A stretch of 64,000 nt of DNA from Pedococcus sp. 5OH_020 (lineage in GTDB: Bacteria; Actinomycetota; Actinomycetes; Actinomycetales; Dermatophilaceae). This document shows, piece after piece, positions 1 through 58,107 of this stretch (positions are counted from its first letter, which is position 1; each line of letters starts with the position of its first letter). The notes beneath the pieces were generated by a model. That model did not search any database and was not told the origin of the DNA. It worked only from the letters and a program-made list of their open reading frames with translations. The position numbers and the translations under genes are program-made. The DNA lies in NCBI RefSeq assembly GCF_027812955.1, contig NZ_JAPYZV010000011.1:62001-126000 (forward strand), written 5' to 3'.

Positions 1-771
1 GTTCACGATCAGGTAGCCCAGTCCGGCCTTGGCGCCCACCATCTCGGCGGCGATGAGGACGAGGATCGAGGCCGTGCCGGCCATCCGGACGCCTGTGAAG
101 ATGGTGGGCACCGCCGAGGGCAGCACGACCTTCTGGAACAGCCTCAGGCTCCCGAGTCCCAGGGAGCGCGCCGCCCTGACCAAGAGTGGGTCCACGGTCC
201 GGACGCCGGCGATCGTGTTGAGCAGCACCGGGAAGAAGCTCGCGTAGGCGACGATCGCGATCTTGCTGGTCTCCCCGATGCCGAGCAGCAGGACGAAGAC
301 CGGCAGCAGCGCGAGGGCGGCGGTGTTGCGGAAGGCCTCCAGCAGCGGGGTGAGGAACTCGCGCAGCCCGTCGTACCAGGCCACCACGAGTCCCAGGCCG
401 ATGCCGGCGACGACGGCGAAGCTGAACCCGATCGCGGAACGGCTCAGGCTCGCGGCCACGTGCTGCTGGAGCTGGCCGCTCTGGACCAGGCCCCACCAGG
501 CCTGAAGTACCTCGTGCAGCGGTGGGAGGAACACCTTGCGGGCCGGGTCCAGCAGGTGCTGCGTGCCGTACTCCCACAGCAGCAGGAACAGCACGACGGC
601 CGCCGACCGCCGGGCCAGCCGCCCGATGCCCCGCGTGACGCGACGAGCTCTGGTATGCCGCGGGGTCACCGCCCCGGTGAGGGTCGGCCCGGCTGAGGCG
701 CCGAGATCCTGGGAGTCCAGACCCCCCGATCCCGCGAGGTCGCCTGCTGTGTCGAGGGTTGCTGTGCTCAT
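1..771 (-). CDS. ssuC: ABC transporter permease, sulfonate/taurine type (partial)
   Basis: This is a binding-protein-dependent permease whose C-terminus lies beyond the left edge; 257 codons are present. After a hydrophilic N-terminus of about 45 residues there are several membrane helices, for example the stretch VVLFLLLWEYG and a later one beginning AALALLPVFVLLLG. The cytoplasmic loop with RAARSLGLGSLRLFQKVVLPSAVP is the EAA-like motif that contacts the ATPase. The start ATG overlaps the stop of the ATPase gene by one base (TGATG), so the genes are translationally coupled. Family assignment to the SsuC/TauC/NrtB type rests on the operon (FMN reductase plus SsuA-like protein); substrate is inferred. 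Confidence 0.9.
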   Translation of the reverse strand, partial: MSTATLDTAGDLAGSGGLDSQDLGASAGPTLTGAVTPRHTRARRVTRGIGRLARRSAAVVLFLLLWEYGTQHLLDPARKVFLPPLHEVLQAWWGLVQSGQLQQHVAASLSRSAIGFSFAVVAGIGLGLVVAWYDGLREFLTPLLEAFRNTAALALLPVFVLLLGIGETSKIAIVAYASFFPVLLNTIAGVRTVDPLLVRAARSLGLGSLRLFQKVVLPSAVPTIFTGVRMAGTASILVLIAAEMVGAKAGLGYLIVN

Positions 772-1628
772 CAGGCTGCCTTCTCTGTGCCGTCGGGCTG
801 GATCTTGAGGTGACCGGCGTCCTGCGCCCTGCGGACCTCGTCGTGCAGGAGGGTCCAGACCTCGTGCCGGTAGTGGACGAAGCGCGGGTCGGACCGCAGG
901 TCTGTGGTGGCCTCGCGTTCGCCGAGGTCGATGTCGACCAGTGCCTTGAGCTGCCCGGGCCGCGAGCTCAGGACGGCCACCCGCTGGCCGAGGTAGACCG
1001 CTTCCTCGATGCCATGGGTGATGAAGACGACCGTGGTGTCGGTGGCTCGCCAGATCCGCAGCAGCTCTTCCTGCAGCTGCTCCCGGGTCTGCGCGTCGAG
1101 GGCCGCGAACGGTTCATCCATCAGCAGGATCCCGGGTTGGTAGGCGAGGCTGCGGGCGATGGCCACGCGCTGCTTCATCCCGCCCGAGAGCTCGTGCGGG
1201 TAGCGGTCCTCGAACCCCTCGAGCCCGACGAGGGCCAGGTTGTCGCGGGCGCGTTCGCTGCGCTCCCGACGGCTCAGACCGCCCTGCTCGAGACCGAAGG
1301 TGACGTTGGCAAGAGTGGTGCGCCAGGGAAACAGGGCATACTGCTGGAACACGATGCCGCGGTCCAGCCCCGGGCCAGCCACCTCCGCACCGTCCACGAG
1401 GACCCTGCCGCTCGTGGGCCGGGTCAGGCCACCAAGCAGGTCGAGCAGCGTCGTCTTGCCCGACCCGCTCGGTCCGACCAGCGTGAGGAACTCACCGCGC
1501 GGCACCTGCAGCGAAAGGTCATGCAGGGCGACCAGCGTGCGGTTCTGCGGCTGGTCCTTCGTGGCCCGCAGGGCGAACTGCTTGGTCACATGCGACAGCT
1601 CGATGTGGGCGCCGTCGTGACCGCTCAT
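771..1628 (-). CDS. ssuB: ABC transporter ATP-binding protein, sulfonate/taurine type
   Basis: This 285-residue ATPase powers the importer with the adjacent permease. Walker A (GPSGSGKTT) is at about residues 52-60, followed by the signature LSGGMKQRVAIARSLA and Walker B ILLMDEPFAALD, then the switch histidine in VVFITHGIEEA. These match the SsuB/TauB/NrtD branch. I chose the ATG that overlaps the upstream solute-binding protein stop by four bases (ATGA), because the longer reading frame further upstream runs antiparallel to nothing useful and simply shadows that gene. The nucleotide-binding motifs are complete, so the gene looks functional. Confidence 0.93.
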   Translation of the reverse strand: MSGHDGAHIELSHVTKQFALRATKDQPQNRTLVALHDLSLQVPRGEFLTLVGPSGSGKTTLLDLLGGLTRPTSGRVLVDGAEVAGPGLDRGIVFQQYALFPWRTTLANVTFGLEQGGLSRRERSERARDNLALVGLEGFEDRYPHELSGGMKQRVAIARSLAYQPGILLMDEPFAALDAQTREQLQEELLRIWRATDTTVVFITHGIEEAVYLGQRVAVLSSRPGQLKALVDIDLGEREATTDLRSDPRFVHYRHEVWTLLHDEVRRAQDAGHLKIQPDGTEKAA

Positions 1629-2728
1629 GACGCAGCCCCGGCCGCGAGTGCATTGAACCTGTTGGTGTACAGCTCGCCGGGGTTGAGCGCGCCCTGCTTG
1701 ACGATCCCGCTCTGCACGAGCCAGGGCTCCCAGCGGGTGAAGTCCTGGTCGCTGATGACACCGCCCTTGCTGGGGATCCCGACGCTCTTCCAGTACTTGA
1801 GGTTGTCGGTCTTCTCGTTGCGGCCCCGCTCGTCGATGATGGCGGTGAAGCGCGCGATGACCTCCTCGCGTGGGCTGGTTCGCTCCCACTCGATCGCCTT
1901 GGCCACTCCCGTGACGAACTCTTTGGCGGCGGCCGGGTGCTGGGCGATGAAGTCGTCCCGCAGGACGTACTGACCGCCGTTGAAGGCGCCGAACAGCTGG
2001 TAGTCACTGAACAGTGACCTCAGCCCTCCGGTGGCGATGGCGTGGTCCTGCAGGACTCCCGACAGGGTGCCGACGTCCACCTGACCGCGACGGACAGCCA
2101 GCTCGGTGTCGTTCGGGGGCAGAGGGACGAGCTGCACCTGCTTGATCTCCGCCGGGCTCAGCCCGTTCTTCTGCAGGTAGGTGTCGATGACGGCCTCGGC
2201 GTGCGCGCCGAGGGTGTTGACGGCGATCTTCTTGCCTATGAGGTCGCGAGCGCCTCGAATCGGGCTGTCGTCCTTGACATAGAACCCGTTGAAGGACTTG
2301 GCATCCTCGCCGTAGTAGTTCACGACTGCCTTGACCGGGGCTCCGGCCGCGATCAGCTTGACGACCGCACCTGAGAAGGCGCCACCGAAGTCGGTCTGAC
2401 GGGTTGCCGCGGACTGGATGTCCTGGGGGCCACTGGTGGTGTTGCCGACCCAAGTGAGCCTGATCGTCGGGAAGTAGCCGAGGTCGGCCGCCAGCTCGGG
2501 AAGCGAGACGGAGTTGGCGTTGCCCTGATAACGCAGTGTCACCGGGCCCTTGTCCCGGCCGGACGTGCTCGCCCCGCTCGACGGGAGCGAGCAGCCGCCG
2601 ACGAGGACCAGGGGTAGTGCAGCGACGAGGGAAGTCACTATGGCCGGGCTCGACGCGAGTGAGCGACGTGGGGTGAGGGAACCACTTGGGTTGAATGAAC
2701 GCTGTGGGTGGCGAAGGAGGGTGCGCAT
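1625..2728 (-). CDS. ssuA: ABC transporter solute-binding lipoprotein, SsuA-like
   Basis: This 367-residue protein should capture the substrate outside the membrane. It has a positively charged N-terminus, a hydrophobic segment and a lipobox-like LVLVGGC, so it is probably lipid-anchored. The body is typical of the SsuA/NrtA periplasmic-binding family: an N-terminal strand TLRYQGNANSVSLPELAADLGYF, the segment NGFYVKDDSPIRGARDLIGKKIAVN, and a C-terminal NRFNAL tail. It sits between the FMN reductase (TGATG one-base overlap) and the ATPase (ATGA overlap). Sulfonate as substrate is inferred from the neighbouring reductase and the SAM riboswitch; the desulfonating monooxygenase itself is not in the window. 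Confidence 0.9.
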   Translation of the reverse strand: MRTLLRHPQRSFNPSGSLTPRRSLASSPAIVTSLVAALPLVLVGGCSLPSSGASTSGRDKGPVTLRYQGNANSVSLPELAADLGYFPTIRLTWVGNTTSGPQDIQSAATRQTDFGGAFSGAVVKLIAAGAPVKAVVNYYGEDAKSFNGFYVKDDSPIRGARDLIGKKIAVNTLGAHAEAVIDTYLQKNGLSPAEIKQVQLVPLPPNDTELAVRRGQVDVGTLSGVLQDHAIATGGLRSLFSDYQLFGAFNGGQYVLRDDFIAQHPAAAKEFVTGVAKAIEWERTSPREEVIARFTAIIDERGRNEKTDNLKYWKSVGIPSKGGVISDQDFTRWEPWLVQSGIVKQGALNPGELYTNRFNALAAGAAS

Positions 2729-3303
2729 CAGGCCACCGCCTCGCGACGAGCAGCGCTGGCGGCGACCAGGGACCGGCCGGCGACGGTGTCGAGGAAGCCA
2801 GCTGTGACCTCGCGCAGCGGTCGCTGGGCGGCCTCGTCGAGCAGCACCTCACCGCCCTCGAGGAGGGTCACGTGCTCGGCCAGCACGAACCACCCCGGGG
2901 TGATGCTGCTGGGCGCGAGGCTTGCGAGCACCGGCCGGAGTGCGTAGTCGACGACGAGCACATGGGCTGGCGTGCCACCGGTGGCCACGGGGAGGACCAC
3001 CTTGCCGCGAAGCGCGAACTGCGGCAGCAGGTCCAGGAAGGTCTTGAGCAGCCCGCCGTAGGCCGCCTTGTAGACGGGCGTTGAGACGACCACGGCGTCG
3101 GCGGCGTCCAGGGTGGCCACGGCCCGGGCAACGTCGGGGTCGTGCGCGTCGCCACGCAGGAGGGGCGCTGCGGGCAGGTCCCGCAGCACGATCGGCACGA
3201 CGACGTGGCCGGCGCGTTGGAGCTGCCGGGCGATGTCGGAGAGAACTGCATCGGTCTTGGACGAGAGGGAGGGGCTGCTGGAGATCGTGGCAATGACAGC
3301 CAT
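2728..3303 (-). CDS. ssuE: NAD(P)H-dependent FMN reductase, SsuE family
   Basis: This 191-residue flavodoxin-like reductase supplies reduced FMN to a two-component alkanesulfonate monooxygenase. The start ATIS-SSPSLSSKTD matches the phosphate-binding loop of SsuE/NADPH-dependent FMN reductases, and STPVYKAAYGGLLKTFLD is the family's strongly conserved loop near the flavin. Length is normal for SsuE. A Shine-Dalgarno GAAAGGA lies seven bases before the ATG. It is the first gene of the sulfonate operon and is separated from the SAM-IV riboswitch and leader ORF by about 130 bases. Confidence 0.93.
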   Translation of the reverse strand: MAVIATISSSPSLSSKTDAVLSDIARQLQRAGHVVVPIVLRDLPAAPLLRGDAHDPDVARAVATLDAADAVVVSTPVYKAAYGGLLKTFLDLLPQFALRGKVVLPVATGGTPAHVLVVDYALRPVLASLAPSSITPGWFVLAEHVTLLEGGEVLLDEAAQRPLREVTAGFLDTVAGRSLVAASAARREAVA

Positions 3304-3431
3304 GGCGGTTCCTTTCGGGCACAGGGCATCTCCGGCCCGGCGCGAAGGCGCAGAGCCGTGAGGCAGAGAAGGGTTTCGCTACACCGAGGAGTCAGGGCGC
3401 GGTTGCGGCGAGGAGAGGGCGAGGAGACGCG

Positions 3432-3536
3432 TCAGCGACGACAGAGCGCGCTGGAGACCCTGAGCAGGTCGACGTGCCTGCGCAGGACCGGTCGACAGGA
3501 GCGATCAGCTGCCTGCCTGGATTCGTTGTCGCTCAT
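3432..3536 (-). CDS. small leader peptide ORF upstream of the sulfonate operon
   Basis: This is a 34-codon ORF lying between the SAM-IV aptamer and ssuE. Its C-terminal half reads LRRHVDLLRVSSALCRR. Short proteins ending in this RR-HVDL-x-RV-xxALC pattern are widely annotated as putative leader peptides upstream of sulfur-metabolism genes in Streptomyces and relatives; I recognise it from memory, not from a search. There is a cysteine at residue 14 and another third from the end. A plausible Shine-Dalgarno (GAGGA, 3546-3550) stands nine bases before the ATG. Known cysteine-rich leader ORFs in mycobacteria act as cysteine-responsive attenuators; this one has few cysteines, so a cis-regulatory role here is inference. 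Confidence 0.7.
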   Translation of the reverse strand: MSDNESRQAADRSCRPVLRRHVDLLRVSSALCRR

Positions 3537-3554
3537 CGGATCCCGTCCTCGAGT

Positions 3555-3681
3555 TGAGGCTCGAGAGCCTCGCGCTTGCGTCAGTCGCTCGACTGACGCC
3601 GGGTCCTCACCCGGAGCACCCAACCGCGAGTGGGAGGGTTGCCGTCCAGCGAGCCGGGGCTTGGCACTGGAGCTCATGACC
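3555..3681 (-). promoter_or_regulatory. SAM-IV riboswitch upstream of the ssu operon
   Basis: Read on the minus strand the element begins GGTCATGAG, then has GCCCCGGCTCGCTGGACGGC, the invariant CGGCAACCCTCC, GGTGCTCCGGGTGAGGACC and the late block GCAAGCGCG. This order matches the SAM-IV class found in actinomycetes. A hairpin GCGTCAGTC-GACTGACGC replaces the variable stem before GCAAGCGCG. Downstream, CCTC at 3556-3559 can pair either with GAGG at 3568-3571 in the aptamer tail or with GAGG at 3547-3550, the Shine-Dalgarno of the leader ORF, which suggests a translational expression platform. Confidence 0.92.
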
Positions 3682-4058
3682 TACGTCGAACGTAGTGGTT
3701 CAGTAGTTACCTACCAAACAAGTAGGATATACCTCTCGCATCGTGGGACGACAGGCGTCGCACACGCACGAAATCCGTTGCGCAGGAGGCTTTCAGCCGA
3801 GACAGCGGTCCGTCACACCGCCGCCTACCTGGGCCAAGGACAGGCCGGGCCAGACTGTCGGTGCGACCACGGTCCGGGTTTCGTTGGACGTAAGGCGACC
3901 CTGACCGTGTCGCAGCACAGGCCGTGGTAGCTGGCGCGCGGGCGATGTCCGCCGTGGCAGACCAGCCATACGGGCTGCGCCAAGGGCGAGTCGTCGCCCT
4001 ATTCAGGCACCACTGGCTTATCGGGGGCCCGCTGAAGGGGTCCGTGTGGCTGGCGCGT
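3682..4058. other. long intergenic region upstream of the ssu transcript
   Basis: Apart from the candidate promoter at its left end I find no gene or convincing structure in these 377 bases. Several open frames cross it, but none has recognisable protein sequence or consistent third-position bias. Confidence 0.6.
3689..3717 (-). promoter_or_regulatory. candidate sigma-A promoter of the ssu transcript
   Basis: On the minus strand TTGGTA (3712-3717) and TACGTT (3689-3694) are separated by 17 bases. The predicted start would fall about seven bases later, right at the first base of the SAM-IV aptamer, which supports the call. Confidence 0.55.
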
Positions 4059-42242: not shown

Positions 42243-42359
42243 GGTCATGAGTGCCAGCTCACAGCCCCGGCTTGCTGGCCGGCAACCCTCCTCCGCGGTG
42301 GGGTGCCCCGGGTGAGGACCTGGCGCACGGCATCCGCCGAGCGCAAGCGCGGGAGACCG
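42243..42359 (+). promoter_or_regulatory. SAM-IV riboswitch upstream of metY
   Basis: The element contains GGTCATGAGTGCCAGC, AGCCCCGGCTTGCTGGC, CGGCAACCCTCC, GGGGTGCCCCGGGTGAGGACC and GCGCAAGCGCGG in the SAM-IV order. About 107 bases remain before metY, including a strong CACCGTCC-CC-GGACGGTG hairpin at 42374-42391, so control may be by termination, unlike in the metX leader. This riboswitch and its leader fill most of the 338-base gap between the Ddn-like gene and metY. Confidence 0.95.
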
Positions 42360-57995: not shown

Positions 57996-58107
57996 GGTGA
58001 TGAGTCCCAGCTTCGAGCCCCGGCTTGCTGGGCGGCAACCCTCCTCGCGATGGGGTGCCCCGGGTGAAGACCTGGCCGACCCTGACCCGGGCGGCAAGCG
58101 CGATGCC
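57996..58107 (+). promoter_or_regulatory. SAM-IV riboswitch upstream of metX
   Basis: The order GGTGATGAGTCCCAGC, GAGCCCCGGCTTGCTGGG, CGGCAACCCTCC, GGGGTGCCCCGGGTGAAGACC and GCGGCAAGCGCG matches SAM-IV. The aptamer's last conserved bases end only two bases before the AGGAG ribosome binding site of metX (58110-58114), so SAM binding should block translation directly. Confidence 0.95.

What the first reader, a model, noticed from the sequence alone, without database searches (positions are those of the whole stretch)
3432..3717. SAM-IV aptamer, pairing switch and leader peptide stacked upstream of the sulfonate operon
On the minus strand the order is promoter, SAM-IV aptamer, 34-codon leader ORF ending HVDLLRVSSALCRR, then ssuE. 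CCTC at 3556-3559 can pair either with GAGG inside the aptamer tail (3568-3571) or with the leader ORF's GAGG ribosome binding site (3547-3550). So SAM may control translation of the leader, and the leader may in turn control the operon. The aptamer class and the leader-peptide family are each known; a serial arrangement in which the riboswitch acts on a sulfur leader ORF is one I have not seen described. The downstream coupling is inference.
Basis: partly seen in the sequence, partly recalled or inferred. Interest (0 to 1): 0.78.

Follow-up and report, generated by a model that had tools for sequence, protein, structure and literature searches.

The report
SAM riboswitch gating sulfur leader peptide
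In front of a bacterial sulfonate-scavenging operon, an RNA sensor for the sulfur metabolite SAM sits directly before the start of a tiny leader gene of a sulfur-regulation family, and related bacteria keep the same two-part order before several sulfur operons, so the operon probably needs two RNA-read signals to switch on.

Summary
On the minus strand: promoter-like box, SAM-IV aptamer (3567-3681, 103.9 bits), Shine-Dalgarno, 34-codon leader ORF (3432-3536, NF042934, 29.6 bits, cut-off 27), C-rich spacer, ssuE and ssuA/B/C-like genes. It is not a one-off: in this genome's family, 29 of 54 leader matches (25 of the 42 over cut-off) lie directly behind a SAM riboswitch, 24 SAM-IV and 5 SAM-I, in nine genera. 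Two more cases lie outside that set. The helix competing with the aptamer's 3' pseudoknot covaries. Pairing of its other strand with the leader's Shine-Dalgarno is not above chance, and equilibrium folding of this window's RNA shows no switch. Best reading: SAM represses initiation on the leader; leader translation, perhaps with stalling at its Cys-containing end, then decides whether Rho stops transcription before ssuE. The first step has comparative support, the second is inference. Riboswitch-controlled uORFs are known in Mycobacterium tuberculosis; my capped open-access searches showed none acting on a sulfur leader peptide.

The parts
3689..3694 (-). -10-like box TACGTT; transcript predicted to start at or next to the aptamer's first base
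   Evidence: TANNNT ends 5-11 nt before the aptamer in 25 of 25 SAM-IV tandem loci, shuffled rate 0.09; the generic sigma-70 scan found no promoter in 3250-3950
3567..3681 (-). SAM-IV riboswitch aptamer
   Evidence: RF00634, 103.9 bits, E 5e-18
3625..3630 (-). P3-loop strand CUCGCG of the 3' pseudoknot (PK2; its role is recalled from the SAM-IV family)
   Evidence: complementary to 3574-3569
3569..3574 (-). tail strand CGCGAG of PK2; its GAG is shared with the anti-anti-SD hairpin
   Evidence: pairing past CGC by at least 2 nt in 22 of 25 tandem loci
3556..3571 (-). hairpin GAGGCU-CUCG-AGCCUC (anti-anti-SD with anti-SD), overlapping PK2
   Evidence: -9.4 kcal/mol; covariation in relatives
3546..3550 (-). 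leader Shine-Dalgarno GAGGA, 9 nt before ATG
   Evidence: sequence
3432..3536 (-). leader ORF MSDNESRQAADRSCRPVLRRHVDLLRVSSALCRR
   Evidence: NF042934 29.6 bits, cut-off 27; motif with synonymous changes in 30 tandem loci
3441..3443 (-). Cys codon (UGU) near the end of the leader
3304..3431 (-). untranslated C-rich, G-poor spacer, candidate Rho loading region
   Evidence: first 90 nt: C 0.48, G 0.21; top percentile of its locus for C minus G; no terminator on the minus strand
2728..3303 (-). ssuE, NADPH-dependent FMN reductase
   Evidence: TIGR03567 182.4 bits, cut-off 164.05
1625..2728 (-). ssuA-like substrate-binding protein
   Evidence: TIGR01728 67.4 bits, below its cut-off of 163.5
771..1616 (-). 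ssuB-like ABC ATPase (start approximate, inside the ORF 771-1889)
   Evidence: PRK11248 255.2 bits, below its cut-off of 357
1..771 (-). ssuC-like permease, cut by the window edge
   Evidence: PRK11365 129.1 bits, below its cut-off of 347

Best explanation
A two-stage RNA regulator. The transcript starts at the aptamer. When SAM is plentiful, the aptamer and its 3' pseudoknot (CUCGCG with CGCGAG) form. This breaks the hairpin GAGGCU/AGCCUC and frees the AGCCUC strand to mask the leader's Shine-Dalgarno, so the leader is not translated. When SAM is low, the hairpin forms and the leader is translated (supported by anatomy and comparison, not by experiment). Leader translation then controls the operon. 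Untranslated leader and C-rich spacer invite Rho, so the operon is off when SAM is high. When the leader is translated, a ribosome slowed or arrested near its conserved ...RVSSALCR end (Cys shortage or nascent-peptide arrest) would cover the start of the C-rich tract, in the manner of tnaC, and let RNA polymerase reach ssuE (inferred). The net logic would be AND: sulfonate scavenging only when SAM is low and the leader's own sulfur signal is also low.
For: Aptamer and leader pass curated cut-offs. The arrangement recurs in 29 of 54 family leader matches with SAM-IV or SAM-I, in Nakamurella lactea and in genome G225. 13 of 17 SsuE genes found in the family lie downstream of a SAM-IV-leader pair, 8 directly and 5 about 4 kb on (coordinates; that the 5 share a transcript is not shown). 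In the genus, the 2 of 11 genomes with SsuE are the 2 with the pair. The competing hairpin covaries and overlaps PK2, whose extension covaries weakly (57 of 2000 swaps reach it). Holding PK2 lowers mean SD accessibility over 25 loci. In the SAM-I cases the leader SD lies in or next to the P1 3' strand (by eye). In this genome's C27 SAM-IV a similar platform stands directly before an ATG (by eye). The leader peptide varies synonymously. The spacer is C-rich with no terminator.
Against: The window's own RNA shows no switch at equilibrium (SD unpaired 0.21 unconstrained, 0.23 with aptamer and PK2 enforced; short model 0.21 free, 0.31 held, the wrong direction). Five of 25 loci go the wrong way and six do not change. 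Anti-SD to SD helices are not above chance. In G008 the competing hairpin is only 4 bp and fails the 5-bp test, as do L057 and L088. 10 of 30 tandem loci have a spacer below the 80th percentile for C over G. 25 of 54 family leader matches have no riboswitch detected. No expression, ribosome or SAM data were available.
Confidence: 0.55

Rival explanations
1. Riboswitch and leader are two independent regulators in one 5' UTR: SAM-IV acts on the operon by some other route (for example premature termination in the leader), and the leader acts by itself; neither controls the other.
For: Each part also occurs alone: SAM-IV in 150 of 186 family genomes, leaders in 39; 25 of 54 leader matches have no riboswitch detected. 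The SD-masking helix is not above chance and the window RNA shows no switch.
Against: The leader start is the first start with an SD behind the aptamer, as picked by hand, its SD roughly 15-30 nt past the aptamer, and the SAM-I cases put the leader SD in or next to P1 (by eye). No intrinsic terminator was found.
Confidence: 0.25
2. Plain riboswitch-to-uORF polarity, as for the M. tuberculosis Mbox: SAM blocks leader translation and Rho then terminates; the leader is only a translated spacer and senses nothing itself.
For: Same anatomy as PMC12810186; C-rich spacer.
Against: The leader's motif is kept as a peptide across genera with synonymous change, which a mere spacer would not need, though loci were found through that motif; 25 of 54 leader matches in the family have no riboswitch detected.
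Confidence: 0.15
3. Chance neighbourhood of an aptamer and a spurious small ORF.
For: The generic ORF list shows many chance ORFs here.
Against: Recurs in nine genera with synonymous variation in the peptide; the joint pattern matched in 0 of 100 shuffles of the window.
Confidence: 0.02

Closest known systems
M. tuberculosis pe20 Mbox controlling uORF2/Rv1805A (PMC12810186: abstract, results part 1 of 2 and discussion seen)
   Same: A riboswitch with a translational platform acts on a small ORF ahead of the operon, with Rho-dependent termination.
   Different: Ligand Mg2+; the uORF's role is unclear and it is not presented as an attenuator peptide; aptamer unrelated.
M. tuberculosis ppe2 B12 riboswitch and uPPE2 (PMC11260477: abstract and one results section seen)
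   Same: Riboswitch-controlled uORF whose translation is needed for the next gene.
   Different: Stop/start overlap between uORF and gene, with evidence against a Rho explanation there; here a 128-nt gap separates leader stop and ssuE start.
Cysteine-responsive polycysteine leaderless uORFs of mycobacteria (Canestrari et al. 2020; not held, known only from passages in PMC9031893 and PMC9094748)
   Same: Small upstream ORF with cysteine codons thought to read cysteine supply by ribosome speed.
   Different: Those ORFs are leaderless with contiguous Cys codons; this one has an SD, a riboswitch and isolated Cys codons.
Candidate cys-operon leader peptides with suspected tna-like Rho control (PMC1262725: passages seen)
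   Same: Leader peptide, no terminator, pyrimidine-rich spacer.
   Different: No riboswitch in the passages seen; Cys runs.
SAM-IV riboswitch (RF00634)
   Same: Aptamer, pseudoknots, platform next to an SD.
   Different: The regulated ORF would be a leader peptide, not an enzyme or transporter gene.
E. coli tnaC (recalled; tna is also named in PMC1262725)
   Same: Proposed geometry: stalled ribosome at the leader end masks an adjacent Rho site.
   Different: Untested here; the signal would be sulfur, not tryptophan.

Membership tests
SAM-IV riboswitch RF00634 | covariance-model score over gathering cut-off | tested here: met
   103.9 bits against 38
SAM-IV riboswitch RF00634 | 3' pseudoknot between P3 loop and tail (that this defines the family is recalled) | tested here: met
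   complementarity only: CUCGCG with CGCGAG, 6 bp
SAM-IV riboswitch RF00634 | SAM binding | not testable with these tools
   needs in-line probing or calorimetry
NF042934 cis_reg_atten leader peptide | profile score over curated cut-off | tested here: met
   29.6 bits against 27
NF042934 cis_reg_atten leader peptide | translated, regulates the downstream gene | not testable with these tools
   synonymous variation suggests translation
Polycysteine leaderless attenuator | run of Cys codons | tested here: not met
   two isolated Cys codons, one in the motif
Polycysteine leaderless attenuator | leaderless start | tested here: not met
   SD and a long structured 5' region; the transcript start itself is predicted
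Riboswitch-controlled uORF (Mtb type) | uORF SD sequestered in the ligand-bound state | tested here: inconclusive
   set-level fold effect; no excess of SD helices; no switch in own RNA
Riboswitch-controlled uORF (Mtb type) | Rho-dependent termination in the leader | not testable with these tools
   composition only
Intrinsic-terminator attenuator | terminator between leader and gene | tested here: not met
   none on the minus strand in 3250-3950

The most novel reading that the evidence does not exclude
A general two-input RNA gate: SAM riboswitches of two classes (SAM-IV and SAM-I) have been placed in front of the same sulfur-sensing, possibly arrest-type leader peptide, so that the riboswitch decides whether the second sensor is read at all. 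Operon expression then follows an AND of low SAM and low cysteine (or another sulfur signal read by the nascent peptide), carried out through Rho.
Probability: 0.35. Interest if true: 0.8.

Novelty: new variant of a known kind. Interest (0 to 1): 0.62.

Why it matters
It would be a riboswitch whose target is itself a regulatory sensor. That makes two sulfur metabolites readable in series on one short RNA, and gives an independent way to find what the widespread ...VDLxRVxSALCR leader peptides sense (matches in 225 of 393 class genomes sampled). The pair recurs with two aptamer classes and several sulfur operons, so the logic can be tested in a simple reporter.

Tried and rejected
An 81-codon in-frame extension of the leader, starting at an ATG inside the aptamer (3677), is open in this window. 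I rejected it because several relatives lack that ATG (GGTCACGAG; others keep GGTCATGAG), several have in-frame stops nearer the leader, and the short form scores higher (29.6 against 26.6 bits).

The first gapped pattern in the genome search (0 of 186 genomes) was void: one N was missing, and it did not match even this genome. The corrected pattern matches it. I draw nothing.

Of 24 genome contigs pattern hits, 16 have SAM-IV over the cut-off. Eight do not: L044, L045 and L055 carry leader-like peptides, and L041-L043, L048 and L064 look like chance reading frames. Fifteen of the 16 are the same loci as G-handle loci, judged by equal contig length; only L057 (Nakamurella) is additional.

Of the 54 family leader matches, 12 are below the curated cut-off, among them 4 of the 29 behind a riboswitch (L107, L111-L113). 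L106 (G133, 26.3 bits) sits in a 643-residue frame that looks like CysN by eye and is probably not a leader; it is kept in the 54.

The non-tandem SAM-IV comparison found only two unique tails, because the regular expression was too narrow; no conclusion is drawn. The 46-base match of G007 is taken as chance: no SsuE in that genome and no such operon visible around it. The first covariation test (6-mers; 16 of 22 with a run of 5 or more, swapped mean 9.9, maximum 15) could not see helices with short loops and was replaced. One search left out the three sequences without a 5-bp helix (L057, L088, L093). In one search one of 11 ORF pairs was dropped for unequal length. Start codons of 25 tandem leaders were picked by hand.

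Full report
What is there. The ORF passes the curated cut-off of NCBIfam NF042934, 'putative leader peptide' (29.6 bits against 27). A TANNNT box ends 5-11 nt before the aptamer in 25 of 25 SAM-IV tandem loci examined (shuffled rate 0.09), so the transcript probably starts with the aptamer; in Corynebacterium glutamicum RNA-seq puts the start of the SAM-IV transcript 2 nt before the aptamer (PMC3890552, passage). The generic sigma-70 scan found no promoter here. The window holds two further SAM-IV aptamers and the genome five in all. Of the five loci, with 1.5 kb on each side, only this one shows the leader motif, and NF042934 exceeds its cut-off once in the genome.

Conservation of the arrangement. 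A joint pattern scan of the species-genome collection gave 24 stretches. Rfam finds SAM-IV over its cut-off in 16 of the 24: Terrabacter, Terracoccus, Humibacillus, Janibacter, Phycicoccus, Luteipulveratus, a Micrococcales MAG and Nakamurella lactea. In the family of this genome (186 genomes), SAM-IV occurs in 150 genomes, and NF042934 gives 54 matches in 39 genomes, 42 of them over the cut-off. I fetched the 53 other leader loci. Rfam finds SAM-IV in 23 and SAM-I (RF00162) in 5 of the 53. With this window, 29 of 54 leader matches (25 of the 42 over the cut-off) lie behind a SAM riboswitch, 28-90 nt from aptamer end to the matched motif, in 20 genomes and nine genera; 25 of 54 have none detected. 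One of those 25 is probably a CysN gene. In a class-wide sample the leader occurs in 225 of 393 genomes. Of the 30 best-scoring loci returned I tested 20, and 1 of 20 has SAM-IV before the leader (L136 of genome G225, which belongs to another family; its reading frame ends SRRHVDLVRVASCTCR). Whether Nakamurella belongs to that same family was not checked. So the pair is common in this family and, on this small and biased sample, rarer elsewhere in the class.

Link to sulfur genes. Seven kinds of downstream gene were seen in tandem loci: SsuE, an SsuA-like protein, cysteine dioxygenase-like cupins (PF05995), ABC permeases and substrate-binding proteins of the amino-acid type, luciferase-like monooxygenases and, for SAM-I, OsmC-like proteins (eight representatives by Pfam). 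Of 17 SsuE genes found in the 186 genomes, 8 lie directly behind a SAM-IV-leader pair and 5 lie about 4 kb further along behind one; 4 do not (coordinates). In the genus, SsuE occurs in 2 of 11 genomes, and these are the two with the pair.

Is the leader translated? In 30 tandem loci (24 SAM-IV and 5 SAM-I of the family, plus Nakamurella) the 12 codons up to the residue before the Cys position keep H, D, L, R and V at five positions in all 30, while the codons vary synonymously (for example R: CGC 14, CGG 11, AGG 3, CGT 1, CGA 1). The loci were found through this motif, so residue conservation is partly selected; the synonymous variation is not. In ten close pairs dN is below dS every time, once only just (0.032 against 0.036), and for this window against G008 it is 0.12 against 0.26; the ORFs are short and the pairs overlap. 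This supports translation of a conserved peptide; it is not proof.

Does the riboswitch act on the leader? For: the leader SD is the first SD-start pair behind the aptamer tail, as picked by hand. Directly after the conserved CAAGCGC a 5-bp helix (G-U allowed) can form with a strand shortly downstream in 19 of 22 unique sequences, against a mean of 2.5 and a maximum of 8 for shuffled downstream sequence, and a mean of 10.5 and a maximum of 16 for swapped strands, in 1000 trials each. The strand pairs change together (GAGGC/GCCUC, GGACC/GGUCC, GGGCC/GGCCC). Its first bases also extend the 3' pseudoknot: by at least 2 nt in 22 of 25 loci; over 15 unique combinations the mean extension is 2.33 of 3 against 2.01 for swaps (57 of 2000 reach it). 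So the two structures exclude each other in part. Holding the pseudoknot bases lowers mean SD accessibility from 0.53 to 0.39 over 25 loci; in 40 shuffle sets the mean change was 0.001 with sd 0.026 and a maximum of 0.060. By locus it falls in 14, stays within 0.01 in 6 and rises in 5 (this window, G008, L065, L080, L100). Related loci are not independent. In the five SAM-I loci the leader SD lies in or next to the 3' strand of P1 (by eye). Against: the anti-SD strand does not pair with the SD better than shuffles or swaps (mean longest helix 3.83 against 3.57 and 3.92, 18 unique sequences). The window's own RNA shows no switch at equilibrium, neither in the short model (0.21 free, 0.31 held) nor in the full model (0.21 unconstrained, 0.23 with aptamer and pseudoknot enforced). 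The competing hairpin alone is -9.4 kcal/mol against -4.9 for the four SD pairs and -8.6 for an alternative SD-masking helix CUCGAG/CUCGAG; the best short-model fold that keeps the hairpin is -15.3 against -16.8 overall. The pairing switch is therefore well supported for its first half, at the level of the family, and open for its second half.

From leader to operon. No intrinsic terminator lies on the minus strand between 3250 and 3950. The spacer is C-rich and G-poor: C 0.48 and G 0.21 in the first 90 nt. In 30 tandem loci the median percentile of C minus G within the locus is 0.89; 20 of 30 reach 0.8 and 10 do not. Sulfur logic fixes the sign: SAM should shut a scavenging operon, so if SAM shuts the leader, leader translation must be permissive (inference). 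The Mbox of M. tuberculosis shows that a riboswitch can act on a uORF together with Rho (PMC12810186, parts seen), though its authors note a main termination site upstream of the uORF. ppe2 needs its riboswitch-controlled uORF, there by coupling rather than Rho (PMC11260477, one section seen). Seliverstov et al. proposed a tna-like Rho mechanism for cys leaders and called the prediction weak (PMC1262725, passages). The stall at the Cys codon or motif is inference.

Known or new. Parts and principle are known: SAM-IV, the leader family, and riboswitch-controlled uORFs. A SAM riboswitch acting on a sulfur leader peptide did not appear in what I saw of the open-access library: searches. Most of these lists were capped (for example 25 of 2,465 papers, none of the 25 holding 'SAM-IV'; 15 of 239), and most entries were seen as listing only. 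Of the four papers holding both 'SAM-IV riboswitch' and 'leader peptide' I saw passages of three, and none describes it; the fourth was not opened. Canestrari 2020 and the SAM-IV discovery paper are not held. The negative is therefore limited. I rate it a new variant of a known kind.

Noticed in passing
L066, L079, L089, L097, L109 (genomes G053, G054, G062, G168): SAM-I riboswitches, not SAM-IV, sit directly before the same leader peptide family; the picked downstream gene is OsmC-like in L066 and L089 (Pfam) and looks so by eye in L079 and L097; the leader SD lies in or beside the P1 3' strand (by eye).
   Followed up: partly
window 3732-3749 (-): A motif like GTCCnnnATgcGAGA lies upstream of the promoter and recurs at a similar place in several tandem loci (by eye); it may be an activator site adding a third, transcriptional input. 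Not tested statistically.
   Followed up: no
L136 1095-1212 (-) and 1314-1430 (+): Two SAM-IV aptamers back to back on opposite strands; the plus-strand one precedes a leader peptide.
   Followed up: no
L111, L112, L113 just after the leader stop: Janibacter spacers carry short inverted repeats, three copies in L111, two in L113 and one in L112 (by eye), which look like dispersed repeats.
   Followed up: no
L086, L087, L095, L099, L101, L105, L116 (leaders without riboswitch): In 7 of the 25 leaders without riboswitch a TANNNT box lies 4-9 nt before a candidate start codon, as in leaderless mRNA (no control run); the family may have leaderless and riboswitch-gated versions of one leader.
   Followed up: partly
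window 42243-42355 (+) and 57996-58106 (+): Two more SAM-IV aptamers in the window, not followed by a leader of this family; by eye one has a start codon within about 30 nt of its tail, the other about 120 nt away.
   Followed up: partly
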